DNA of 64,000 nucleotides from Hahella ganghwensis DSM 17046 (GTDB taxonomy: Bacteria; Pseudomonadota; Gammaproteobacteria; Pseudomonadales; Oleiphilaceae): the NCBI RefSeq assembly GCF_000376785.1, contig NZ_AQXX01000117.1:1-64000 (forward strand), written 5' to 3'. The position numbers were made by a program, and so were the translations under genes. Shown here piece by piece: positions 34,383 through 64,000 of this stretch. How positions within the stretch are numbered: position 1 is the stretch's first letter; each line of letters starts with the position of its first letter. The notes beneath the pieces were generated by a model, which saw only the letters and a list, made by a program, of their open reading frames with translations, did not search any database and had not been told where the DNA came from.

Positions 34383-37061
34383 ATGCATCAAGATGCCGAT
34401 CCTATCGAAACCCAGGAATGGCTCGAGTCCATCGAGTCTGTTCTTGAAAACGAGGGCATCGAGCGTGCGACCTATCTGCTGACTCGGCTTGCTGAGCGGG
34501 CAACTAGGGACGGGACGCAGCTGCCATACTCAATCACCACTCCCTACCGTAATACGATACCAGCCTCCAAAGAAGCCCGTATGCCGGGAGATTTGTTTAT
34601 GGAGCGTCGTATCCGGTCATTAGTACGCTGGAATGCGCTGGTCATGGTACTGCGTGCCAACAAGCGTCCTGGTGATCTGGGTGGGCACTTATCCTCCTTT
34701 TCTTCCATCGCCACGCTATATGATGTTGGTTTCAACTATTTCTTCCACGCGGGAGATGACAAGCGTCAGGGTGACCTGATCTATTGGCAGGGGCATACCT
34801 CCCCAGGTGTTTATGCCCGTTCTTACCTGGAAGGGCGCATTACCGAAGAGCAGATGGATAATTATCGCCGTGAAGTCGACGGTAACGGTCTGTCTTCTTA
34901 TCCGCATCCCTGGCTGATGCCGGGTTACTGGCAGTTCCCAACGGTATCCATGGGGCTTGGACCGATACAGGCTATCTACCAGGCTCACGTCATGAAGTAC
35001 CTGGACAACCGGGAAATGACCAAGACAGAGGGTCGGAAGGTCTGGTGCTACGTAGGTGACGGCGAGTGTGATGAGCCGGAAACTCTGGGGGCTATCGGTC
35101 TGGCCGGACGTGAGCGTCTGGACAACCTGATCTTCGTAATCAACTGTAACCTTCAGCGTCTGGATGGCCCTGTTCGTGGTAACGGCAAGATTATTCAAGA
35201 GCTGGAAGGCATATTCCGCGGTGCCGGTTGGAACGTTCTTAAAGTGGTATGGGGACGTTTGTGGGATCCACTGCTGGAAAAAGACACCAATGGCTCTCTG
35301 CAGCGTCAGATGGACCTTGCCGTTGATGGTGAAATGCAGAACTTCAAATCCAACGGTGGCGGCTATACCCGGGAAAACTTCTTCGGCAAGGATCCTGAGG
35401 CATTGAAGCTGGTAGAGAACATGTCTGATGAAGACATCTACAAGCTTAACCGCGGTGGTCATGACCCATACAAAGTTTATGCCGCTTACCATGCTGCGGT
35501 GAATCATAAAGGTCAGCCAACGGTTATCCTGGCGCATACCGTTAAAGGTTACGGCTTCGGTGAACAGGGCGAAGCCCAGAACACCACGCACCAGTTGAAA
35601 AAGCTGGATATTGAAACGGTGAAGAAATTCCGTGACCGTTTTGGTGTACCCGTATCCGATGACGAAATTGAGAATCTGCCATACTATCGTCCGTCACCGG
35701 ATTCCCCGGAAATGCTTTACATGAAAAAGCGCCGGGAAAGCCTGGGTGGTTATCTGCCGAAACGCCAGCCGGATACACAACCTCTGCCGATTCCTGAATT
35801 GTCAGCCTTTGACGCTGTATTGAAAGGAAGCGGTGATCGTGAAATCTCCTCGACCATGGCGTTCGTGCGTGTCCTGAACACGTTGACCAAAGACAAGCAG
35901 ATCGGTAAGCGTATTGTTCCGATAGTTCCTGATGAAGCACGTACTTTTGGTATGGAAGGCATGTTCCGTCAGTTGGGGATTTACACCTCTGAAGGTCAGA
36001 AGTATGTCCCGAACGATCGCAATCAGATCATGTACTACCGTGAAGACAAAACCGGCCAGATCCTGGAAGAAGGGATTAACGAAGCTGGTGCCATGTCTGC
36101 CTGGATTGCCGCAGCAACGTCCTACAGCACCAACAATCATCCGTTGATTCCGTTCTACATCTACTATTCGATGTTTGGATTCCAGCGGGTTGGCGATCTG
36201 GCCTGGGCGGCCGGTGACATGCGTGCCCGAGGTTTCCTGCTGGGTGGTACCGCAGGTCGTACAACACTGAACGGTGAAGGTCTGCAGCACCAGGATGGCC
36301 ACAGCCACATTCTTTCTGCCACGATTCCGAACTGTATTTCTTACGATCCGGTATTCGGTTATGAAGTGGCAGTGATTGTTCGTGAAGGCATGCGCCGCAT
36401 GTATGCCGAGAACGAAAGTGTGTATTACTACATCACTCTGATGAACGAAAACTACGTGCATCCGGAAATGCCGGAAGGTGCGGAAGAGGGCATCATCAAG
36501 GGAATGTACCTGTTCCAGGAAGGTGAAAAGAAAGGCGGTAAGAAAGGTAGTAAGAAATTTGATGCCAAAGTTCAGTTGCTGGGCAGCGGGACAATCTTCC
36601 GTGAAGTCCTGGAAGCTGCTGAGCTGTTGAAGAAGGATTACAACATTGATAGCGATGTCTGGTCTGTTACCAGCTTTACCGAGCTGGCTCGCGACGGCCA
36701 TCACGTACGCCGCTGGAATATGCTGCATCCTGAAGAGCCGCGCCGTGAGAGTTTTGTGAAGTCGATGCTGAAGGATCGTGAAGGTCCTGTGGTAGCGTCC
36801 ACGGACTATATGCGTCTGTTCGCCGATCAGGTCCGTCAATTCATTCCTCAGCAAACGGTTCATGTTCTGGGTACGGATGGTTTCGGCCGCAGTGATACTC
36901 GCGAGAAGCTACGTCATCACTTCGAAGTCGACAGGTATTATGTGGTGGTTGCCGCACTTGACTGTCTGGCGCGTGAAGACAAGATCGAGCGCTCTGTAGT
37001 GTCTGATGCGATCAAGAAATACGGTATTGATCCTAACAAACCTAACCCCATCAACAGCTGA
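34383..37061 (+). CDS. aceE: Pyruvate dehydrogenase E1 component, homodimeric type
   Basis: ThDP-dependent decarboxylation of pyruvate and acetyl transfer to lipoyl-E2. The ATG at 34383 gives 892 residues starting MHQDADPIETQEWLESIESV, matching the E. coli start, with AAGGAG 8 bases upstream; the frame is open to 34215 but that lies in leader DNA. Landmarks: RRIRSLVRWNALVMVLRAN, GNGLSSYPHPWLMP, the ThDP motif GDGECDEPE...VINCNLQRLDGPV, DEARTFGMEGMFRQLGIY and LGTDGFGRSD. aceF follows after 15 bases. Confidence 0.97.
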   Translation: MHQDADPIETQEWLESIESVLENEGIERATYLLTRLAERATRDGTQLPYSITTPYRNTIPASKEARMPGDLFMERRIRSLVRWNALVMVLRANKRPGDLGGHLSSFSSIATLYDVGFNYFFHAGDDKRQGDLIYWQGHTSPGVYARSYLEGRITEEQMDNYRREVDGNGLSSYPHPWLMPGYWQFPTVSMGLGPIQAIYQAHVMKYLDNREMTKTEGRKVWCYVGDGECDEPETLGAIGLAGRERLDNLIFVINCNLQRLDGPVRGNGKIIQELEGIFRGAGWNVLKVVWGRLWDPLLEKDTNGSLQRQMDLAVDGEMQNFKSNGGGYTRENFFGKDPEALKLVENMSDEDIYKLNRGGHDPYKVYAAYHAAVNHKGQPTVILAHTVKGYGFGEQGEAQNTTHQLKKLDIETVKKFRDRFGVPVSDDEIENLPYYRPSPDSPEMLYMKKRRESLGGYLPKRQPDTQPLPIPELSAFDAVLKGSGDREISSTMAFVRVLNTLTKDKQIGKRIVPIVPDEARTFGMEGMFRQLGIYTSEGQKYVPNDRNQIMYYREDKTGQILEEGINEAGAMSAWIAAATSYSTNNHPLIPFYIYYSMFGFQRVGDLAWAAGDMRARGFLLGGTAGRTTLNGEGLQHQDGHSHILSATIPNCISYDPVFGYEVAVIVREGMRRMYAENESVYYYITLMNENYVHPEMPEGAEEGIIKGMYLFQEGEKKGGKKGSKKFDAKVQLLGSGTIFREVLEAAELLKKDYNIDSDVWSVTSFTELARDGHHVRRWNMLHPEEPRRESFVKSMLKDREGPVVASTDYMRLFADQVRQFIPQQTVHVLGTDGFGRSDTREKLRHHFEVDRYYVVVAALDCLAREDKIERSVVSDAIKKYGIDPNKPNPINS

Positions 37062-53598: not shown

Positions 53599-54003
<405 letters not shown>

Positions 54004-54124
54004 TCACGCATAGAGCGTGCCAGCCTGTCATCATGTGATATATCAGAGAGTTGGAAGAGGGCGGTGGGAGTTACCTGAGATGTGCACCAGAAATGGTCGA
54101 TATGCATTAGGATGGCCAGCCCTG

Positions 54125-54184
54125 GTGCACAAATTAGTAGTGCACAGATTAGTAGTGCACAAAGTAATAGTGCACAGAGTCGAG
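54125..54184. repeat. Four tandem 15-bp repeats each starting GTGCAC
   Basis: GTGCAC begins at 54125, 54140, 54155 and 54170. The first three spacers are AAATTAGTA, AGATTAGTA and AAAGTAATA; the last has drifted (AGAGTCGAG). GTGCAC is itself palindromic. It lies about 190 bases upstream of the PII gene and 3' of the FMN reductase gene. Confidence 0.85.
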
Positions 54185-54234
54185 TGACCTTTCGGGTCCT
54201 GGCAACCTAGTGACGTTTGTTGAATAGCCCGTTT

Positions 54235-54280
54235 TACAAGGCCAATTCTGGGGGAAAAACAGTCCAGAAAAGGCCTTGTA
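54235..54280. repeat. Two-tier hairpin at the 3' end of the FMN reductase gene
   Basis: TACAAGGCC (54235-54243) pairs with GGCCTTGTA (54272-54280), and TTCTGG (54246-54251) with CCAGAA (54264-54269), separated by two A's on each side, with a 12-base loop GGGAAAAACAGT. It starts 11 bases after the reductase stop on the minus strand. No T-run follows, so its role may be mRNA end protection rather than classical termination. Confidence 0.75.
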
Positions 54281-54290
54281 TCTCGTCAGT

Positions 54291-54902
54291 CTATAGAAAC
54301 GTTTCCGCGCGGGCCTTGGCGATCATCACGAGTTCGGTGGTCATTGCTTCCAGGCGATCCGAGAGAACTTTATCTATGATATTGCCTCTCTCATCAAAGG
54401 CTTTAAAGGCGGCAGGAACGGCAACCTGTTTTGCAATGACGAGGCTTCCCACACTGGTCAGGATATCTCTCAGATGGCTCAAACCACGAATACCTCCCAG
54501 ACCTCCGGGTGAGGTTCCCATGATTGCGACCGTTTTCCGGTCAAAGTCAGGCTGATAACCAGAATCATCATGACCCGGGCGTGATAACCAGTCCAGTGTG
54601 TTTTTCAGCACACCGGATAGCGAACCGTTGTATTCGGGGCTGGCGATCATCAGTCCATCGGCCTGTAGAAAAAGTTCTCTGAGGCGATCCAGATGCTCAG
54701 GTGTTTCTCCGCTGGCTTCCAGGTCTTCTGAAAAAAGTGGCAGCGGGAAATCGCGCAGGTCGATGACTTCAACCTTGGCGCCAATCTGTTCGGCTTGACG
54801 AGCGGCGTTGTTGACCAGCTTTTTATTCCACGAATCTGCTTTCAGGCTACCGGCGAAGGCCAGGATTGCGGGTGTTTTAGCGGTGTTCTCTGAATGGATC
54901 AT
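54291..54902 (-). CDS. NADPH-dependent FMN reductase family protein
   Basis: Flavodoxin-like flavoprotein, 203 residues from the ATG at 54902 (AGGAG upstream). It has [16 protein letters not shown] for FMN phosphate binding, [21 protein letters not shown] (flavin ring loop, quoted in part) and [15 protein letters not shown]. Members reduce FMN, quinones or azo dyes. It is divergent from a LysR-family gene with about 85 bases between, the classic arrangement for a stress-induced reductase and its regulator. The reading frame to 54995 has no similarity and overlaps the regulator. Confidence 0.88.
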
Positions 54903-54987
54903 GATGCGGCTCCTGTAATAAATCTCAATTGTTGGAGCTATTTTGATCTGTTCCTCATTGAACAAAAACAGAATTAGTGCAAAGCTA

Positions 54988-55926
54988 ATGTGCATGAATG
55001 CACAGAAGTCAACACATCGACATCCAGTACTCAGTGGTGCTCAGGCCGGAGACTGGAGCGATATTTATTTTGCCTTTCAGGTCGCCAGGCTCGGTACCCT
55101 GTCTGCTGCTGCAGAAGCACTGGATGTACATCATTCAACAGTGTTACGCCGTATAGACAGTCTTGAAAAGCGATTGAAGATCAAGCTCTTTCACCGGCAT
55201 GCCCGCGGCTATGCGCCCACTGAGGCAGGTAAACTTTTGTTTCAGACGGCAGAGCAGACACAAAGTGAATTTGACCGATTAATGGGGCAGCTTTCAGGGC
55301 TGGACCAGCAACTGACTGGAAGCCTGATCATCACTACAGTGAATTCATTCAGTGCTGCATTGATGCCAATCCTGGCAGAGTTTCAGAACCAGCATCCTGG
55401 GATTCGCATAGAGTTTGTGGCGGACTCTCGGATATTCAAACTGGAATATGGCGAAGCGCATATCAGCGTTCGTCCCGGAGTAAGACCAAAGGATCCTGAC
55501 CATATTGTGCAACATCTTCACACGATTCCTTCATCCCTATATGCATCGTCCAGGTACATTGAGCAGTTTGGCAGAATGGAAAAACGCGAAGAGGTTGCCG
55601 GACACCGGTTCATTGGTTCCATTACACCCTACAACAATGTTTCCGCGATGGCCTGGTTGAATAAGCATGTGCCGGATGAGCAAGTGTATCATCGTGGATC
55701 GGATTTCATTTCCATGATGCATGCCGCTGAAGTCGGTCTTGGCATAGTGCCTTTGTCATGCTGGTTAGGGGATTCCAGTCAAAAACTGGTCAAAATGTTA
55801 GATCCTCCTGAGGACTGGGATTCCCCTGTCTGGCTGGTCACACATCGGGACATTCACCGGACTCCCAAGGTTCAAGCCCTAAGTCAGTTCCTGAAACTGA
55901 AAGTGCCGCAGATTGGCTCTGTTTAG
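54988..55926 (+). CDS. LysR-family transcriptional regulator
   Basis: From the ATG at 54988 it has 312 residues. The helix-turn-helix is [20 protein letters not shown] followed by [20 protein letters not shown], and the effector domain follows from about residue 115 ([20 protein letters not shown]). There are about 25 residues before the helix-turn-helix, more than usual, so a later start at Met3 is also possible; a TTG at 54943 would overlap the divergent promoter. It is next to, and probably controls, the FMN reductase gene. Confidence 0.87.
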
Positions 55927-55953
55927 CTGTGAGTGCCGGATGATCAGTACTAA

Positions 55954-56469
55954 CTATACCTGGGCCAGGATAACCACGTAATTCTCCCCATATTTCTTTG
56001 CACATTTGGGACAGGTTGTGTAGAAGAAGTAGAGCTTTTTGATTTCCCTGCCTTGCTCTTGAACATAGGACCTCATTTCTTCGATCCACTGTGTCATGTG
56101 ACGATAAGAGCCTTCGAATACTTTGGAAAGAAAGGTGCCTGACAGGGTGGTCGTTTCCACACCTTTGATTTCTTTAGAAATGGGAAGATACACATCTGAT
56201 CCCCAGAGAGATTTTTCGTCCGATAGAACAAACATATCCTCCGAGTCTGCTCCGGCAGCTTCAATCGCTTCCATATCGCGTTTCATCACCGCCCCGAAGT
56301 TAAGAGGGATATGAAACAGGCTGATGACGTGATCTTTCAGAAAGCGTTTATCGTTCCAGACAATCTCCCTGTCTTCCCATGGTTCCGGATTGAATCTTGG
56401 ACAACATTCTGTTGTTTGCTCAGTCACACTCCTCTCCTTGTACGCGTCCTTATCAACGATATGAATCAT
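55954..56469 (-). CDS. Conserved protein with C-terminal CPKC motif
   Basis: A 171-residue protein that I know only as a conserved hypothetical seen in bacteria and archaea, at times labelled hydrolase. Signatures are ECCPRFNPEPWEDREIVWND, FHIPLNFGAVMKRDM, a GTFLSKVFEGSYRHMTQW segment and, near the end, LYFFYTTCPKCAKKYGENYV. The CC and CxxC pairs might bind a metal. The fold may be of the GyrI/SRPBCC-like small-molecule-binding type, but this is a guess. The gene is alone. Confidence 0.75.
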   Translation of the reverse strand: MIHIVDKDAYKERSVTEQTTECCPRFNPEPWEDREIVWNDKRFLKDHVISLFHIPLNFGAVMKRDMEAIEAAGADSEDMFVLSDEKSLWGSDVYLPISKEIKGVETTTLSGTFLSKVFEGSYRHMTQWIEEMRSYVQEQGREIKKLYFFYTTCPKCAKKYGENYVVILAQV

Positions 56470-56894
56470 GACGGCTTTCCTATGATTCCGTTGTGGGAGA
56501 TTAACCTGAAACGGGGAGGAAGGAATTGATTTGGAGCAGGTAAAGAGCCAGGATATCGCTCTAGCTGGAGTTCTTTTAGATTACGAAGATTCAGGTTTGC
56601 AGCAACCGGTGTAGTCCTTAAACTGAATTGGCATGTGAAAGAATAAAGAGGAGACAGGTTTATTACCTGGAATTAGAGACTTTCTTATATCGCAGAGGAA
56701 GATTGTTGCCTGTATAGCTTTTCAGTTTTGATATTGTCCCTGTGATCTCAGTGAGTTTGGGCTCTACTAGTAGGCAAGACTATATTCTGACCAAACTGCT
56801 TCTCAAAATGGCGATACACTGTTATCATTTCGCGCAATTTATCATGATGGGGCCTTGGCGTCTCTGCTAGTAAACATGGACTTGAGCTTTATAT
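56470..56894. other. Gap before the flagellar cluster, no gene seen
   Basis: This 425-base AT-rich stretch lies between a minus-strand gene and the first flagellar-cluster gene and must hold the cluster's promoter. I searched by eye for sigma-54 (GG/GC 12-24) and sigma-28 patterns and saw no match worth reporting. TTATCAT (about 56832-56838) could be a -10. Confidence 0.4.
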
Positions 56895-57431
56895 ATGTTG
56901 GATCTGTCTTTATTCGAAGGTGATGAACTGCTGGCACTCGCTAAGCTGGATATTGAAAACAGCCGTATTGACTTCGCTTTGGCAAAGCTGAAGCAGGCGA
57001 ATAGCTTGCCTGATCCTCAGCCAGAGTGTGATTCCCTTTTAGCCAAGCTATATGCTCAGCTAAATCTTTTTGACAGGGCGTCATATCACTACGAAAGCTA
57101 CTTAATGAAAAAGCCTGATGCCTTATTGGAGCGTTTCCAGTATGGCATGGTCTATTACGAACAAAGTATCAAGGAAAGAGCACTTCTTGTATGGAAAGAA
57201 GTGTTGGACGAAGTTCCAACGTTTCCTCCTGCCCTCTATTACTGTGCTTTGGTGTCTTGGGAAGAAGATAACGAGCCGGAAGCTCGAAGGTTAATTGATA
57301 TTCTTCTGAAATCCGCTCCCGCAGACAACCTCTACTTTAAACGTGGCAAAGAATTATTAAACGCTTTGGACAATAATGTTAATGCGGGCTCAGTTACACC
57401 TCCCCGATTTGAAAATCAAAAAATCAACTGA
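56895..57431 (+). CDS. TPR-like protein at the head of the flagellar cluster
   Basis: I do not recognise this 178-residue protein. It is all-helical, with three or four TPR-like pairs (for example ALAKLKQANSLPDPQPECDS and LYAQLNLFDRASYHYESYL, then ALYYCALVSWEEDNEPEARR). No signal peptide is present. The start ATG at 56895 has a weak ribosome-binding site. It is 11 bases before a second TPR gene and 1.2 kb before fliQ on the same strand, so it may be a chaperone or assembly factor for the flagellar export system, or a protein that only shares the operon. Confidence 0.65.
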   Translation: MLDLSLFEGDELLALAKLDIENSRIDFALAKLKQANSLPDPQPECDSLLAKLYAQLNLFDRASYHYESYLMKKPDALLERFQYGMVYYEQSIKERALLVWKEVLDEVPTFPPALYYCALVSWEEDNEPEARRLIDILLKSAPADNLYFKRGKELLNALDNNVNAGSVTPPRFENQKIN

Positions 57432-57442
57432 TAGAGAGCTTT

Positions 57443-58579
57443 ATGTCCTTAGCCGAAATTAAGGAAAGAGTCGGTCGTCTGAAGCAGTTTCTCATTCAGG
57501 ATCCTCAAAACTTTTCTTTACATCTTGACCTGATTCGTCAGCTAAGTCTGTTGGGGGATTTTAAATCGTTGCAAGAGCAGTTCAATACTGCGAAGGAGCT
57601 GTTTCCTTCACATCCTGGGCTTTTGTATGAAGAAGCCTTGATGTTTTTGTCTACTGGCAATTTTGATGAAGCCGAGAAAATCATTAAGGATGTCATTTCT
57701 CAAGGTATAAATGACGGAGAAGTGCTATACCTTGCCTCGTATTGCTGTCTGATGGGTCGCAAGCCCCAAGAGGCTTTGTCTTATCTCGAAGTCTGTTACA
57801 ACGCAAATCGAAGCAATATTAAGTTCCCGATTTTAATGGCTCGAATTCAATACTTCTTAAGGGCGCTTGAGAATGTAGAGGATTGCCTTGAGGAAGCCTT
57901 GCAACTGGATGCTGCTTCTGTTGAAGCTCTGTCCTTGTTTGCCTCCTGCAAACTAGATCAAGGAGATTATGACGCTGCCAAATCCTATGCCAGTCAGGCA
58001 TTAGCTTTGGATTCTGACGATGCAAATTCTTTGGGAGTTATTGCCTACTGCAATATGTCTGAAATGAATTTCGACCTTGCGCAGGCTCAGATAAGTAAAG
58101 CCCTTAATATCAAAACTGATTCTGGCCGGCTATGGATTGGGCAAGCATTGCTCAGTATGCGGCGAAAGGATTTGGCTATGGCTGAAGAGCAGTTTTTAAA
58201 AGGCCTTACCCACATGCCGGGTCATATAGGATCCTGGAATGCACTGGCATGGTGCAGGATATTGCAGAATGACCTTCCTGGAGCAAAAGACTGCTGCGGA
58301 AAAGCAATCGAGTTAGATGGACGGTTTGGTGAGACATACGGTGCATTGGCAGTAGTCGAGCTGTTTTCGGGGAACATAGAGGCCGCCCGAAATAATGCTA
58401 AAAAGGCGATCCGGTTGGATAAGAACAACTTTTCTGGATATTTTGCGCAGGCGCTATGTGAGCATATGTCTGGAGATAAGAAGAAAGCGTCCGAGATCGT
58501 TGCGTCATTGCTTAACTCTCCTGTGGACGAAAGCGGCAAAACACTCACAGATTATCTGGCCACTCACATCGTTGCTTAA
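57443..58579 (+). CDS. TPR-repeat protein in the flagellar cluster
   Basis: A 378-residue cytosolic protein of about ten TPR units, including EALMFLSTGNFDEAEKIIKD, SCKLDQGDYDAAKSYASQA, AQISKALNIKTDSGRLWIGQ and AWCRILQNDLPGAKDCCGKA. No enzyme domain or membrane segment is seen. Only 12 bases separate its stop from the fliQ ATG, so the two are likely co-translated. TPR proteins often act as chaperones of type III export substrates or in motor assembly; this role is an inference from position. Confidence 0.75.
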   Translation: MSLAEIKERVGRLKQFLIQDPQNFSLHLDLIRQLSLLGDFKSLQEQFNTAKELFPSHPGLLYEEALMFLSTGNFDEAEKIIKDVISQGINDGEVLYLASYCCLMGRKPQEALSYLEVCYNANRSNIKFPILMARIQYFLRALENVEDCLEEALQLDAASVEALSLFASCKLDQGDYDAAKSYASQALALDSDDANSLGVIAYCNMSEMNFDLAQAQISKALNIKTDSGRLWIGQALLSMRRKDLAMAEEQFLKGLTHMPGHIGSWNALAWCRILQNDLPGAKDCCGKAIELDGRFGETYGALAVVELFSGNIEAARNNAKKAIRLDKNNFSGYFAQALCEHMSGDKKKASEIVASLLNSPVDESGKTLTDYLATHIVA

Positions 58580-58591
58580 GGAAAAGTGCTA

Positions 58592-58858
58592 ATGACAATT
58601 GATCAGGCAATGCAGCTAACAAATGATATGTTGTGGGCTGCCATTATGATTGCCGCGCCTATTCTGGGAGTGGCGATGGTGGTTGGCCTTGTCATTAGTA
58701 TTCTTCAGGTTATTACCCAAATACAGGAAATGACACTGACCTTTGTTCCTAAGATTGCCGCTGTTGTCGTAGTGTTGTTTATCCTGGGGCCATGGATGCT
58801 CGCTACATTAACGGTTTTCGCGAGCACGCTTATAAAAAATATCCCTGTGTATTTCTGA
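58592..58858 (+). CDS. fliQ: Flagellar biosynthesis protein FliQ
   Basis: Export-gate subunit with two membrane helices. The 88-residue product has the family profile: QAMQLTNDMLWAAIMIAAPI, LGVAMVVGLVISILQVITQI and QEMTLTFVPKIAAVVVVLFI. The ATG at 58592 follows AAGGAA; a GTG two codons upstream is less likely. The usual partner fliP is not upstream. fliR follows after 7 bases. Confidence 0.93.
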   Translation: MTIDQAMQLTNDMLWAAIMIAAPILGVAMVVGLVISILQVITQIQEMTLTFVPKIAAVVVVLFILGPWMLATLTVFASTLIKNIPVYF

Positions 58859-58865
58859 GGCAAGA

Positions 58866-59636
58866 ATGACATTTCAATTTGACATGGGGTGGATTTGGTC
58901 TGTTGTTCTGTTAAGCGTTCGTATGTCGACCATATTCTATTTGACTGTTCTGGACTTGTTCGGCAGGGTTCCCGGTCGCTTTCGTTTGATAATGGTGGTG
59001 ACGCTTTCAGCTTTGCTGTTTAGTGCGAACTTCTCTGTTACTGCTCCATTACCAGGGACACTTGTTGAGATGGTTTTGGACTTGGCTGGAGAGGTTGTGA
59101 TTAGCGTTATGTTAGTCCTTGGGTTGCATGTGGCGTTTTCCACATTTCAGGTTGCGGGTCGTTTGGTTGACTTTCAATCTGGTTTTGGTGCTGCAAACCT
59201 CCTAAACCCGGCTACGAACTCTGCTGACCCTCTGATCGGTACATTGTTGTTATTTGTGGCAACTTTCGTATTTTTCTCGGTAGACGGGCATCATTTGGTG
59301 TTAAGAGGATTGGTTTACAGTGTACAGCAGGTGCCTCTCGGTAGTTGGGGAGGGGGAATGAGTTTACCTGCTGTACTTCAGCAATATGGCTTAATGTTTC
59401 TGTTTGGTATGACGATAGCTGCCCCCGTTTTGGCAGTATTATTTTTTGTTGATGCCGGTCTAGCTGTGATGGGGAAAACGATGCCCCAAATGAATGTATA
59501 CTTTATTTTTCTTCCTCTTAAAGTGGCGTTGGGAGTTGGAATGACTGCTCTATCGCTCAAATATATGTTGCCTCTCATATCTGAAGTGATATCGAGTATA
59601 TTTCGTTATTGGAATCAAATAATTACAGCTGCCTGA
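58866..59636 (+). CDS. fliR: Flagellar biosynthesis protein FliR
   Basis: Inner-membrane export-gate protein with about six membrane helices, 256 residues. Family features include GRVPGRFRLIMVVTLSALLF, DFQSGFGAANLLNPATNSAD with the conserved Gly/Phe pattern, and a C-terminal PQMNVYFIFLPLKVALGVGM. It follows fliQ and precedes flhB by 38 bases. Confidence 0.93.
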   Translation: MTFQFDMGWIWSVVLLSVRMSTIFYLTVLDLFGRVPGRFRLIMVVTLSALLFSANFSVTAPLPGTLVEMVLDLAGEVVISVMLVLGLHVAFSTFQVAGRLVDFQSGFGAANLLNPATNSADPLIGTLLLFVATFVFFSVDGHHLVLRGLVYSVQQVPLGSWGGGMSLPAVLQQYGLMFLFGMTIAAPVLAVLFFVDAGLAVMGKTMPQMNVYFIFLPLKVALGVGMTALSLKYMLPLISEVISSIFRYWNQIITAA

Positions 59637-59674
59637 GATTAATATATCTGAATAAGTCGTAAAAGTAGTAAAGT

Positions 59675-60784
59675 ATGGCAGAATCTCAACCGGATAAATC
59701 AGAAAAGACTGAACCACCCTCGCCTTATAAGTTGCAGGAAGCAAGAAAAAAGGGAGGGGTATTTAAGAGTATGGAAGTCTCTCATCTTGCCGGGCTTTTG
59801 GTCGCCGTGCTTTTACTATGGTCTATGGCGCCAGGGATTGCTGAAAATTTTCTGAGGGTATGCGTTAGGTTATTTGATGTCTCTGGTTCTATTCCATTTG
59901 ATATTATAACCGTGCATGGTTGGAGTGAGTGGGTTGTAAGTGAGGTTGTTGAGATTCTCACTCCTGTGTTCGTCATGACCATGTTGGCAGGTGTCGTCGC
60001 TGTATTGCTGCAGACCGGCCCTATACTTTCTTTCCATCCAATAAAACCTGACATTAAGAGAATCAATCCAATTGAGGGATTCAAGCGTCTGGTTTCAATT
60101 AAAATCCTATTTGAACTACTGAAGAATGTAATAAAGCTTTTACTGTTGGGAGTCATTATATTTTATTGCGTAAAAGAGTTTCTTCCGCATGCTTTTGGTT
60201 TGACTCAGAGGGGGGCAGCTAACGCTATACCCTTTATTTCAGCCCACTTAGGAACCTTGATTCTCAAACTGGCGATTGCCCTGATTGTAATCTCAGCCGC
60301 TGACTTTCTATTCGTACGGAGAGAATTTCTGCGCAATATGCGCATGACCAAAAAGGAGGTCAAAGACGAAATGAAGCGTCGGGAGGGCGATCCTATGGTG
60401 CGGTCAAAAAGGCGTGAATTAGAGCAAGAGCTTCGTAAGCGCAGTTCGTCCGTTAAAAGCGCTGAGAACGCAGATGTCATCATTACCAACCCTAGTCATT
60501 ATGCGGTGGTGGTTAAATATGATCCGCAAAGTATGCTGGCTCCTAAAGTGACAGGCAAAGGTATGGATGCAATGGCATTCCACATCCGATCTATTGCTAA
60601 GCGACACGGCGTTCATATCGTGGAGGATCCCCCCTTAGCCCGATACTTATACAGAAAAGTAGGGATTGATAAAAATGTACCCGAAGCTGCTTATATGGGG
60701 GTTGCAAGGGCATTGCGCAAAGCATACAGACTGAAAAGATCTGGTGTTGGTCAAGTTAATACATCTTATAGGTCTGCTGTATGA
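59675..60784 (+). CDS. flhB: Flagellar export switch protein FlhB with NPSH cleavage motif
   Basis: Switches export from rod/hook to filament substrates after self-cleavage. The 369 residues comprise an N-terminal segment with EKTEPPSPYKLQEARKKGG (the KTE/EPT..K.R pattern of FlhB), four membrane helices (about 35-210) and a cytosolic domain. In place of NPTH the cleavage motif reads NPSH (Asn272-His275; DNA 60488-60499), followed by YAVVVKYDPQSMLAPKVTGK. The Ser for Thr change is conservative. It overlaps flhA by 4 bases (ATGA). Confidence 0.95.
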   Translation: MAESQPDKSEKTEPPSPYKLQEARKKGGVFKSMEVSHLAGLLVAVLLLWSMAPGIAENFLRVCVRLFDVSGSIPFDIITVHGWSEWVVSEVVEILTPVFVMTMLAGVVAVLLQTGPILSFHPIKPDIKRINPIEGFKRLVSIKILFELLKNVIKLLLLGVIIFYCVKEFLPHAFGLTQRGAANAIPFISAHLGTLILKLAIALIVISAADFLFVRREFLRNMRMTKKEVKDEMKRREGDPMVRSKRRELEQELRKRSSSVKSAENADVIITNPSHYAVVVKYDPQSMLAPKVTGKGMDAMAFHIRSIAKRHGVHIVEDPPLARYLYRKVGIDKNVPEAAYMGVARALRKAYRLKRSGVGQVNTSYRSAV

Positions 60785-62883
60785 GCAACACTAAGGCAAC
60801 ATTTTCAACCTTTTTAGGAACGCGAAGCGAAATTGGCTTAGTGCTGGGCATGGTTGGAATATTGTTGGTTTTATTCACGCCCATACCTTCGCAGCTTCTC
60901 GATTTTCTGCTCATCGCCAACTTCAGCTTCGGGTTGACTTTGTTGCTACTTACTTTTTTTGTAGATAAGCCTTTGGGGTTTTCTACCTTCCCTTCACTAT
61001 TGTTAATAGCAACACTATTCAGGCTTTCTCTGAATATTGCCGCCACACGTTTGATTCTTTCCGATGGCGACGCGGGTAGCGTGATAAATGCTGTAGGAAC
61101 CTATGTGGTTGGCGGCAATTATGTGATCGGTCTCGTCGTATTTTTAATCCTGATTGTCGTTCAGTACGTTGTTGTGACGAGTGGAGCACAGCGTGTTGCA
61201 GAAGTCGCGGCTCGATTTACGCTTGACAGTATGCCCGGGAAGCAAATGAGTATTGATGCTGACATGAATATGGGGCTGATCAATGAAAACGAGGCCCGGG
61301 AAAGACGCCAGACTATCGAAAAAGAGGCAAGTTTTTATGGAGCAATGGACGGTGCCAGTAAATTTGTAAAAGGAGATGCTATTGCCGGGATACTAATAAT
61401 ACTGATTGATATTATCGGTGGTTTGGCTATTGGTGTAGCCCAATTGGGATTGAGTTGGGGGGACGCTTTACATACCTATACACTACTAACAGTGGGTGAT
61501 GGTATTGTCACACAGATCCCAGCTCTGGTGATTTCTACTGCTACCGGCATCATTATTACAAGAGCTGCTACAGATGCTCATCTGGGGAGTGAGATTTCAA
61601 ATCAGATTACTCAATATCCCAAGACATTGGTCATTGTTGTAATAGGTCTGTTGCTGCTACTTACTTTACCTGCAATACCATTCTTCCCTGTACTTGCTGT
61701 TGCATCTATATTCGGTTGCTTGGCCTTCGTTGCGTATAAGAAGAGTTCTGCAAATGATATCGGTACAAAGGAGCAACATGAAGCTGAAGAAGACAAGTCT
61801 CTTTATGATGAGCTAAAGATTGAGCCCATTGAGGTTGTGTTGGGATCGGAGCTTATGAAGTTCTTCGGGGAGAATGAAAGCAAACTGATGGATGAAGTAG
61901 ATCGATTCAGGAAGCAATTTGCTTTTGAGCTTGGACTTGTATTACCCAAGGTGAGAATAATTCAAGAAGGCGCCCCCAAAAATAATTCTTATAAGATTTG
62001 TTTGCATGGTGTTTGTGTTGCTAGTGGGGAGTTGTTTGTGAACCAGTTTCTGGCAATAAGTGCGCAGGATATGGGAGATAAGCTTCCAGGTATTAAAGTA
62101 TTAGATCCTACTTATGGTTTACCTGCTGTATGGGTGGAGCAGGCAGAAGCTGAGTTGGCCAGGTCTCTGAACTGTACTCTTGTAGACCCGCTGACAGTTT
62201 TGTTGACCCACTTCAGTGAGGTCCTGAAAGGAAAAGCTCCGGTGCTAATTTCAAGATCGGAATCTGAAAAGTTAATGATGCGGGTGAGAGTTGCGCAACC
62301 AACATTATATGACGACTTAGTTCCAAGTACCTTGACGATAAGCGATATCCAGAGAATTTTGCAAAATCTGGTCAGTGAGAAGGTGTCTATAAGAAATATT
62401 GAACTCATAGCTGAAACACTGGTGGATGTTGGCAAGAGAGTGAAAGACCATGTTCAGCTAACAGAGCTGGTCCGGCAAAAGCTAGGGGCAGAGATATGCC
62501 AAAAACTGGTCGCTAAGGATAATTTTCTATATGTCATCAGTTTCGATCCTGGAGTCGAGCAAATATTCCAGAGTGGATTAAAAGCTACTGAAGACGGAGG
62601 GTCATTGTTTGTAGACCCCAAAATTACTGAGCAGGTTTTGACGAGGCTTGCAAAACTCGTAGAACAAATGATGGCAGATGGGTTGGAGCCAGTTCTGATT
62701 TCGTCACCCAGTCTTCGGTCTCATCTCAAGAAGCTAACTGCGCGGCTGTTGCCGGGTCTAAGCGTACTTTCCCTGTCTGAAATTCCAGCGGGCTTAAATA
62801 TTAAGTCATTTGGGGTTGTCGAACTGGAGCGTGGTCTATCAGGCAGTATCGAAAACCGTTATGAAAAAAGAGGCGAAAGATGA
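60781..62883 (+). CDS. flhA: Flagellar biosynthesis protein FlhA
   Basis: Export-gate protein with eight membrane helices (about 20-325) and a large cytosolic domain. Signatures: LIANFSFGLTLLLLTFFV, FSTFPSLLLIATLFRLSLNI (FHIPEP), the cytosolic loop PGKQMSIDADMNMGLINENE with the conserved acid pair, and TQIPALVISTATGIIITRAA. Length 700 as usual. It overlaps flhB and the following flgF-like gene by 4 bases each, so translation is tightly coupled. In standard clusters flhF follows; here it does not. Confidence 0.95.
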   Translation: MSNTKATFSTFLGTRSEIGLVLGMVGILLVLFTPIPSQLLDFLLIANFSFGLTLLLLTFFVDKPLGFSTFPSLLLIATLFRLSLNIAATRLILSDGDAGSVINAVGTYVVGGNYVIGLVVFLILIVVQYVVVTSGAQRVAEVAARFTLDSMPGKQMSIDADMNMGLINENEARERRQTIEKEASFYGAMDGASKFVKGDAIAGILIILIDIIGGLAIGVAQLGLSWGDALHTYTLLTVGDGIVTQIPALVISTATGIIITRAATDAHLGSEISNQITQYPKTLVIVVIGLLLLLTLPAIPFFPVLAVASIFGCLAFVAYKKSSANDIGTKEQHEAEEDKSLYDELKIEPIEVVLGSELMKFFGENESKLMDEVDRFRKQFAFELGLVLPKVRIIQEGAPKNNSYKICLHGVCVASGELFVNQFLAISAQDMGDKLPGIKVLDPTYGLPAVWVEQAEAELARSLNCTLVDPLTVLLTHFSEVLKGKAPVLISRSESEKLMMRVRVAQPTLYDDLVPSTLTISDIQRILQNLVSEKVSIRNIELIAETLVDVGKRVKDHVQLTELVRQKLGAEICQKLVAKDNFLYVISFDPGVEQIFQSGLKATEDGGSLFVDPKITEQVLTRLAKLVEQMMADGLEPVLISSPSLRSHLKKLTARLLPGLSVLSLSEIPAGLNIKSFGVVELERGLSGSIENRYEKRGER

Positions 62884-63587
62884 GTGAATTGGTAGGAGCA
62901 ATTCAGAATACCTTAAATGCTGATTTGCTCAGATTGCGAACTATAGGTCAAAACCTGGCTAACCTGGAAACCCCTGGATATAAAAGCGATAAATTGATCT
63001 CCCAGCCTTTCACTAGAGTCATTTCCAGTGAATTGGAAGGTGCTGACAAGCTTGTTATCGCTAAGGATTTCTCCCAAGGAGCTATCAAACCAACAGATAA
63101 TTACTGGGATCTTGCAATAGAGGGGGAGGGCTACTTTGTTGGAGAGAAAGATGGAGTGACTCAGTACACCAGGTCTGGCCAACTGACGATGACTTCAGAC
63201 GGGAAGTTGGCCTTGCCGAGTGGTGCTTATCTATTGGGGAAGGCCGGGCCGATTCAATTAAATTCTGATCAGTTTGAAGTCAGGAGTGACGGCACAGTGA
63301 TTAGTGATGGACACAGTATTGATCGCTTAAAAATAGTAACTTTTTCCGATCAGGACAGCTTGCGTTCAATCGGTGCTGCTACATTCGTCGCCGAAGGTGA
63401 GTTGCGGCCTACGGATTCTGATGGAGTTCAAATATTACAGTCGTTTGTTGAGGTGTCCAATGTGAACACTATGGATGAAATAGTGAGCATGATGGAGCTT
63501 ACTCAACATTATCGGATGACTCATAATGTTTTAAAGGCGTATGAGTCTTCTATCAGCACATCGATTTCCACGTTAGGAAAGTTTTAG
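62880..63587 (+). CDS. flgF: Flagellar basal-body rod protein FlgF-like
   Basis: Proximal rod protein of the FlgF/FlgG family, 235 residues. LLRLRTIGQNLANLETPGYKS is the N-terminal signature, WDLAIEGEGYFVGEKDGVTQ the central one, and the C-terminal SFVEVSNVNTMDEIVSMMEL is typical of FlgF/G. FlgF is the best fit because the next gene reads as FlgG; FlgC-type identity was ruled out by length. Its ATG overlaps flhA (ATGA), so rod genes are in one transcript with export-gate genes. Confidence 0.85.
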   Translation: MSELVGAIQNTLNADLLRLRTIGQNLANLETPGYKSDKLISQPFTRVISSELEGADKLVIAKDFSQGAIKPTDNYWDLAIEGEGYFVGEKDGVTQYTRSGQLTMTSDGKLALPSGAYLLGKAGPIQLNSDQFEVRSDGTVISDGHSIDRLKIVTFSDQDSLRSIGAATFVAEGELRPTDSDGVQILQSFVEVSNVNTMDEIVSMMELTQHYRMTHNVLKAYESSISTSISTLGKF

Positions 63588-63600
63588 GGAGTTTTTCAGC

Positions 63601-64000
63601 ATGATTGATGCTTTGTATGTCGCTGAAACCGGTCTTCAGGCCGGGCAAAAGCATATTGATACAATCTCCAACAACATGGCCAATCTTAATACTACGGCTT
63701 ACAAGAAAGGTCGCATAGAATTTAGGGATTTAGTCGTTGGGCGAGAAGTGACTTCTCTCGATGAGACTGGTAAGAGAGATTTGGTTTCAATCGGCAATGG
63801 CACTCAGATATCTAGGGTATGGAAAGAATTTCAATCTGGCGATTTAAAAGCCACGGAAAACCCACTCGATTTAGCGATTCGAGGAGGAGGCTTTTTTGAA
63901 GTTCTTCTGGAAAATGGAGAAGTCGCTTATACCAGAAATGGGGCGATGAAAGTGGACGAAGATGGTTATCTGGGAACTCTCACGGGGTATAGATTCTCAG
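63601..64000 (+). CDS. flgG: Flagellar distal rod protein FlgG (cut by the window end)
   Basis: The first 133 codons lie in the window; the gene continues past 64000. It starts MIDALYVAETGLQAGQKHID and has ISNNMANLNTTAYKKGRIEF and GNGTQISRVWKEFQSGDL, typical of FlgG, with AIRGGGFFEVLLENGEVAYT following. The SNNMANLNTTAYKK wording differs from the enteric FlgG form, in line with a divergent flagellar set. It is 13 bases after flgF. Confidence 0.9.
   Translation, partial: MIDALYVAETGLQAGQKHIDTISNNMANLNTTAYKKGRIEFRDLVVGREVTSLDETGKRDLVSIGNGTQISRVWKEFQSGDLKATENPLDLAIRGGGFFEVLLENGEVAYTRNGAMKVDEDGYLGTLTGYRFS

What the first reader, a model, noticed from the sequence alone, without database searches (positions are those of the whole stretch)
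56895..64000. Atypical flagellar-type export cluster headed by two TPR genes, without fliP or flhF
The order TPR-TPR-fliQ-fliR-flhB-flhA-flgF-flgG differs from the usual fliLMNOPQR-flhB-flhA-flhF-fleN of these bacteria: fliP is missing upstream of fliQ and rod genes follow flhA directly with 4-base overlaps. The block looks AT-rich: two sampled 60-base blocks hold 23 and 17 G+C (57481-57540, 60121-60180), against 42 in an aceE block (36181-36240). Together with NPSH in FlhB this suggests a second or transferred flagellar system. The two TPR genes may be its specific chaperones.
Basis: partly seen in the sequence, partly recalled or inferred. Interest (0 to 1): 0.75.

Follow-up and report, generated by a model that had tools for sequence, protein, structure and literature searches.

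The report
Motorless flagellum-like exporter beside giant toxins
Besides its normal flagellum, a marine bacterium carries genes for a second flagellum base that appears to lack motor and filament and lies next to a giant toxin-like gene, so it probably exports proteins instead of driving swimming.

Summary
The genes are real: they are the left third of a 27-gene, ~22 kb operon (contig C117 56895-78735). fliP is not missing; it is the second-last gene. The genome also has a normal flagellum and two injectisome-type loci. The operon encodes export gate, ATPase, rings, rod and hook, but no flagellin, cap, stator or recognisable FliG motor domain. I found it in 48 genomes (5 Hahella, 43 others), plus G044, three genomes of a class-wide sample and a Variovorax plasmid. 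Its FlhA forms one clade apart from proteobacterial flagella and injectisomes. Ten of the 48 have no flagellin or FliG_C match anywhere, yet keep it. A giant YD-repeat gene with a shared N-terminus lies within about 6 kb in 29 of 43 non-Hahella genomes and 5 of 5 Hahella. In two genome samples strong N-terminus matches occur in exactly the genomes with this FlhA; Hahella G003 is an exception. YD tails vary; 3 of 18 match toxin domains and 3 of 11 downstream ORFs match immunity families. Best reading: a flagellum-derived, non-motile type III exporter of polymorphic toxins. Export itself is inferred. Flagellar-type export without flagella is already published for Lysobacter.

The parts
56895..57431 (+). 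tprA, 178-aa TPR protein, first gene of the operon
57443..58579 (+). tprB, 378-aa TPR protein; candidate cargo chaperone (inference)
   Evidence: tprB-type match in 45 of 48 genomes
58586..58858 (+). fliQ, export gate
   Evidence: TIGR01402 above cut-off
58866..59636 (+). fliR, export gate
   Evidence: best model FliR, 138.5 bits, cut-off 168.6
59675..60784 (+). flhB, export gate and switch, NPSH site
   Evidence: best model FlhB, 343 bits, cut-off 349.25
60781..62883 (+). flhA, export gate; marker gene of the family
   Evidence: best model FlhA, 750.6 bits, cut-off 772.1
62880..63587 (+). flgF, rod protein
63601..64000 (+). flgG, rod protein, runs to 64371 on the contig. The operon goes on outside the window to 78735 (flgA H I B C fliE F G H I J K flgD E fliM N O P tprC), followed by the YD gene from 79034, cut by the contig end at 79302

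Best explanation
The operon encodes a flagellum-derived type III export machine that is not built for swimming: FlhA/FlhB/FliPQR gate, FliHIJ ATPase, FliF ring, a reduced C-ring (short FliG-position protein, FliM reduced to its C-terminal SpoA part, FliN), rod, P and L rings and hook, with no motor domain, stator, filament or cap of its own (shown by sequence). Its main cargo is most likely a family of giant YD-repeat polymorphic toxins that share one N-terminus and lie beside the operon (linkage shown, export inferred). Inferred steps: TPR proteins hold or target the giant cargo; its N-terminal leader is read at the FlhA/FlhB gate; it passes through rod and hook out of the cell, to act on competing microbes. 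A sigma-70 type gene in most non-Hahella operons probably controls their expression.
For: 27 collinear genes with full gate, ATPase, rings, rod and hook, same order in Hahella, Kangiellaceae, Grimontia and, largely, Variovorax. Ten of 48 operon-bearing genomes have no Flagellin_N and no FliG_C match, nor FliD_N or MotB_plug (6 of 6 comparison genomes have both); in 8 of these 10 the operon holds the only FHIPEP gene. No similarity to the primary FliG in the 48 operon regions, control found. FlhA is a clade of its own. YD gene within about 6 kb of the operon in 29 of 43 non-Hahella and 5 of 5 Hahella genomes. Co-occurrence in two samples: 4 and 4 of 151 genomes, and 4 and 4 of 369 at E<=1e-20, the same genomes each time. 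Toxin domains in 3 of 18 tails, immunity families in 3 of 11 downstream ORFs. Outside support: L. enzymogenes OH11 (PMC7277350, PMC9927559).
Against: No export was measured. In 14 of 43 non-Hahella genomes the YD gene was not found beside the operon (two have no match at all, one has it 31 kb away, the rest on other contigs). Hahella G003 has two matches to the YD N-terminus (33-37% identity, E 4e-30 and 3e-20) although it shows no such FlhA. Four of 365 other class-sample genomes have weak matches without the operon. In G001 three YD genes lie far from the operon. YD toxins in general can use other exporters (recalled). 15 of 18 tails match no known toxin domain. The leader is not clearly flagellin-like.
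Confidence: 0.72

Rival explanations
1. A motorless flagellum-like structure with another job (adhesive hook, help to type IV pili, envelope conduit); the YD genes merely sit beside it or use another exporter.
For: In L. [quoted passage not shown] YD gene not adjacent in 14 of 43 genomes; G003 has YD N-termini without the FlhA type.
Against: Tight co-occurrence and adjacency on either side of the operon.
Confidence: 0.2
2. A second, working motility flagellum (lateral type) whose filament, stator and motor genes lie elsewhere.
For: Complete gate, rod, hook and rings; the own genome has four Flagellin_N genes and several MotB_plug genes elsewhere.
Against: Ten operon-bearing genomes have no flagellin, FliG_C, FliD or MotB_plug match; short fliG and fliM genes.
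Confidence: 0.04
3. A decaying or rearranged flagellar cluster.
For: Shortened FliG and FliM, no filament genes.
Against: Open frames and the same order from Hahella to Grimontia; a separate primary flagellum; separate FlhA clade.
Confidence: 0.03

Closest known systems
FT3SS-like genes of non-flagellated Lysobacter enzymogenes OH11 (PMC7277350: abstract and parts 1-2 of the text; PMC9927559: passages)
   Same: Flagellar-type export genes without a flagellum; export of a foreign flagellin needs flhB and fliI; said to be needed for secretion of antifungal toxins. Genes reported absent there (fliC, fliD, flgK, flgL, flgB, fliE, fliG, fliM, motA, motB) are those missing or highly diverged in the present operon. 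Lysobacter sp. Root690 (G085) has this operon with a YD gene beside it.
   Different: OH11 itself was not in my data; its genes were reported not to form an operon; no link to YD genes seen in the passages read. The toxin report they cite is not held.
Injectisome (non-flagellar T3SS; PMC3459982, passages)
   Same: Flagellum-derived export machine without motor; SpoA-only C-ring proteins; possible toxin delivery.
   Different: Keeps rod, hook, P and L rings; FlhA not in the injectisome clade; best NCBI models are flagellar.
Buchnera hook-basal bodies (mentioned in PMC3459982)
   Same: Basal body reduced, proposed to secrete protein.
   Different: Here a separate FlhA clade next to toxin-like genes, in free-living bacteria.
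Rhs/YD-repeat polymorphic toxins
   Same: RHS repeats, DUF6531, variable tails, toxin domains, neighbouring immunity families.
   Different: Mostly about 3,700-8,100 aa, one shared N-terminal leader, linked to a flagellar-type operon.

Membership tests
Bacterial flagellum | Export gate, ATPase, MS/P/L rings, rod, hook | tested here: met
Bacterial flagellum | Own filament and cap (flagellin, FliD) | tested here: not met
   none in the operon; no Flagellin_N in 10 of 48 operon-bearing genomes, no FliD_N in those 10
Bacterial flagellum | Motor: FliG_C domain and stator | tested here: not met
Bacterial flagellum | NCBI equivalog cut-offs | tested here: inconclusive
   FliQ and FliF above; FlhA, FlhB, FliR, FlgF just below
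Injectisome (NF-T3SS) | SctV-type FlhA | tested here: not met
   590.5 bits, cut-off 692.25; outside the injectisome clade
Injectisome (NF-T3SS) | Secretin instead of P/L rings | tested here: not met
   flgH and flgI present, no secretin gene recognised in the operon
Lysobacter FT3SS-like system | Same operon and FlhA clade in L. enzymogenes OH11 | not tested
   OH11 genome not searched; Lysobacter sp. Root690 has it
Polymorphic toxin (YD gene) | Conserved N-terminus, variable toxin tail, adjacent immunity gene | tested here: met
   18 of 20 tails unmatched among themselves; 3 of 18 toxin domains, 3 of 11 immunity families; for the window's own YD gene only 89 codons are on the contig
Type III substrate (YD gene) | Export depends on this gate | not testable with these tools
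   needs secretion assays; leader comparison inconclusive

The most novel reading that the evidence does not exclude
A third class of type III machine beside flagella and injectisomes: an independent conversion of the flagellum into a toxin exporter that kept rod, rings and hook, lost motor and filament, spread over Gamma- and Betaproteobacteria, and is dedicated to giant YD-repeat toxins marked by a shared N-terminal leader.
Probability: 0.6. Interest if true: 0.92.

Novelty: new variant of a known kind. Interest (0 to 1): 0.82.

Why it matters
Injectisomes are the standard example of a flagellum turned into a delivery machine. This operon looks like a separate conversion that stopped elsewhere: rod, outer rings and hook kept, motor gone. 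It would show which flagellar parts export needs, give giant YD toxins a dedicated exporter, and may place the puzzling flagellar genes of non-flagellated Lysobacter in a wider family. It also warns that such genes can be annotated wrongly as flagella.

Tried and rejected
Rejected: rearranged primary cluster; motile second flagellum; missing fliP; NPSH as a marker.

Led nowhere or weak: flagellin-like export signal in the YD leader: 14 flagellins scored at the 69th to 98th percentile of 374 N-termini, and the best non-YD hits were FlgF of this operon. FliG identity: profile comparison 5% probability, no Pfam or NCBIfam hit, AlphaFold pLDDT 74, first 7 of 55 Foldseek matches are FliG but E is 0.18 or worse; so fliG is named by position and weak fold likeness. 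PADLOC nothing; Rfam on 54000-64000 nothing; promoter/terminator scans no clear signal.

Limits: the profiles of tprA/B/C, of fliM/fliN and of the rod/hook family (flgB, C, E, F, G) cross-match, so their counts, and the FliM motif count, are not used; fliJ, fliK and short-fliG profiles matched only 5 to 10 genomes. In the first FlhA tree 16 rows are under half filled; one search repeats it with 42 long rows. The 5-row tree came from a faulty filter and is discarded. Order sample: 3 of 4 positives were already known. The sigma gene was not found in G044 or G468 nor in 5 Hahella. Of 20 YD proteins, L198 and L206 have ends that match others (L198 is cut by its contig); L193 and L207 were read without their N-terminus. 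The YD gene of G086 is interrupted; its pieces end about 4.4 kb from tprB.

Full report
What is there. The window's end holds eight collinear genes, tprA-tprB-fliQ-fliR-flhB-flhA-flgF-flgG. The contig (C117, 79,302 bases) continues with 19 more: flgA, flgH, flgI, flgB, flgC, fliE, fliF, a 159-aa fliG-position gene, fliH, fliI, fliJ, fliK, flgD, flgE, a 257-aa fliM-like gene, fliN, fliO, fliP and a third TPR gene (names by similarity, order and reading, several tested). No gap inside the operon exceeds 54 bases; 298 bases after it a YD-repeat gene starts at 79034 and is cut by the contig end.

Whose genome. The own genome has four FHIPEP genes: this one, a primary flagellum on C142, and two loci on C127 and C144 that look like injectisomes by gene content. 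Abby and Rocha report two Ysc injectisomes in H. chejuensis (PMC3459982, passages).

Not a motility system. The fliG-position protein has no Pfam or NCBIfam match; a fold search ranks FliG structures first, but not significantly. In 50 genomes FliG_C matched in 40, once each and twice in G061; a tblastn search of the 48 operon regions with the own primary FliG found nothing, while its own locus was found. The fliM-like protein matches only the C-terminal part of FliM. Flagellin_N and FliG_C are both absent from the same 10 of the 50 genomes. All 10 carry the operon; by record title 6 are isolates and 4 MAGs. These 10 also lack FliD_N and MotB_plug matches, while 6 of 6 comparison genomes have both. 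In 8 of the 10 the operon holds the only FHIPEP gene; G060 and G085 have one more.

A conserved family. One scan with the window FlhA gave 45 loci: two Hahella and 43 others. With G000, G001 and G002 this makes 48 genomes, among them Pleionea, Dyella, Rhodanobacter, Oleiagrimonas, Xanthomonas, Stenotrophomonas, Pseudoxanthomonas, Lysobacter, Arenimonas, Grimontia and Enterovibrio. flhA, flhB, fliR, flgA, flgH and flgI matched in 48 of 48. The right end with fliP was read in 5 Hahella and 31 of the 43 others; those 31 all have a sigma-type gene near fliP, the 5 Hahella do not (one of the 31, from G059, was checked by Pfam). Further cases: G044, G468, G512 and G548 from a class-wide sample and a Variovorax plasmid with a 6,200-aa YD frame. 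Among 96 FlhA proteins the 48 family rows lie on one side of a branch (SH-aLRT 99). In a careful tree of 42 rows with alpha, beta, gamma and Bacillota flagella and three injectisomes, the 19 family rows form one clade (100/100); whether injectisomes or the family branch nearer to proteobacterial flagella is unsettled (82/50). In these trees the family does not come from its hosts' own flagella. In NCBIfam FlhA, FlhB, FliR and FlgF fall just below the flagellar cut-offs, and the first three further below the injectisome ones; FliQ and FliF pass.

The partner. In G001 the operon is followed by a 5,221-aa YD gene, in G002 by one of 5,711 aa. The first 250 residues of the G001 protein matched in 46 of 50 genomes; the misses are G004 (its contig starts inside the gene), G006 (no such FlhA by the pattern), G081 and G089. 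G003, which also lacks this FlhA, has two matches at 33-37% identity. The YD gene lies within about 6 kb of the operon in 29 of 43 non-Hahella genomes, upstream, downstream, or on both sides (G073, G090, G100), with contig identity checked by length, and in 5 of 5 Hahella. The other 14: G058 has it 31 kb away; G062, G072, G077 and G078 on other contigs; G069, G071, G075, G084, G087, G097 and G098 on other contigs while the operon's contig ends nearby (in G098 a YD-like piece lies just upstream of tprB); G081 and G089 have no match. Under a simple random-placement model (two YD loci, 5 Mb genome) 29 of 43 has P about 5e-36. Two samples test co-occurrence. Of 151 genomes of the order of G083, 4 have the FlhA type (49-54% identity; the next best is 40% or less) and exactly those 4 the YD N-terminus. 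Of 369 genomes of the class, 4 including the own have the FlhA type and exactly those 4 the N-terminus at E<=1e-20; four others have weak matches of 25-29% identity. By coordinates the YD gene lies beside the operon again in G195, G468 and G512, and on other contigs in G548.

What the partner looks like. RHS repeats and DUF6531 after a leader of about 35 residues. Of 20 YD proteins read, 18 have ends without a BLASTP match to any other. Of 18 tails scanned 3 match toxin domains (EndoU, WHH, TNT); of 11 small downstream ORFs 3 match immunity families (SUKH twice, Imm70 once). G001 has four such genes, three with 98-100% identical N-termini and one at 58%, all with different tails. This is polymorphic toxin architecture. 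The window's own YD gene is known only for its first 89 codons.

Mechanism. Shown: gene content, conservation, separate ancestry, absence of filament and motor parts, linkage to YD genes. Inferred: the hook-basal body is a conduit; the gate exports YD proteins; the TPR proteins are chaperones; targets are competing microbes. Outside support: in L. enzymogenes OH11 flagellar-type genes export a foreign flagellin although the cell has no flagella (PMC7277350, abstract and parts 1-2 of the text), and a later paper states that they are needed for secretion of antifungal toxins (PMC9927559, passages). The report behind that statement is not held.

Novelty. Ten full-text searches of an open-licence library listed no paper whose title or abstract start describes a filament-less flagellar operon linked to YD toxins; the long result lists were shown only in part and subscription papers are mostly missing, so the negative is limited. 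Because the Lysobacter work already describes flagellar-type export without flagella, I file this as a new variant of a known kind; a new class of type III machine is not excluded.

Noticed in passing
G001:C1 4051881, 4622330 and 2756166 (L190, L191, L192): Three more giant YD genes with the same type of N-terminus (99, 98 and 58% identity) lie far from the operon and end in unrelated tails; possible distant substrates of the same machine.
   Followed up: partly
G000:C127 1-30000 and C144 180000-202000: Two injectisome-type loci by gene content, in line with two Ysc systems reported for H. chejuensis (PMC3459982, passage).
   Followed up: no
C117 73760-75742 (right of the window): Hook protein FlgE has 660 aa in the Hahella operons, against 385 and 380 aa in G059 and G090.
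   Followed up: no
C117 78736-79033 and L046 13548-13565: A G+C-rich hairpin lies before the YD start in G001; a similar inverted repeat with a T run is visible by eye in the own gap (sequence), though the scan did not call it. Possibly a terminator or attenuator.
   Followed up: partly
L118 4731-5423 (G059) and 30 further non-Hahella operons: A sigma-70 type gene lies near fliP in 31 of 31 non-Hahella operons read to that end, but not in 5 Hahella, nor in G044 and G468.
   Followed up: partly
G003 and G006 (same genus): By the FHIPEP pattern these two of seven Hahella genomes lack this FlhA; G003 nevertheless has two diverged YD N-termini.
   Followed up: no
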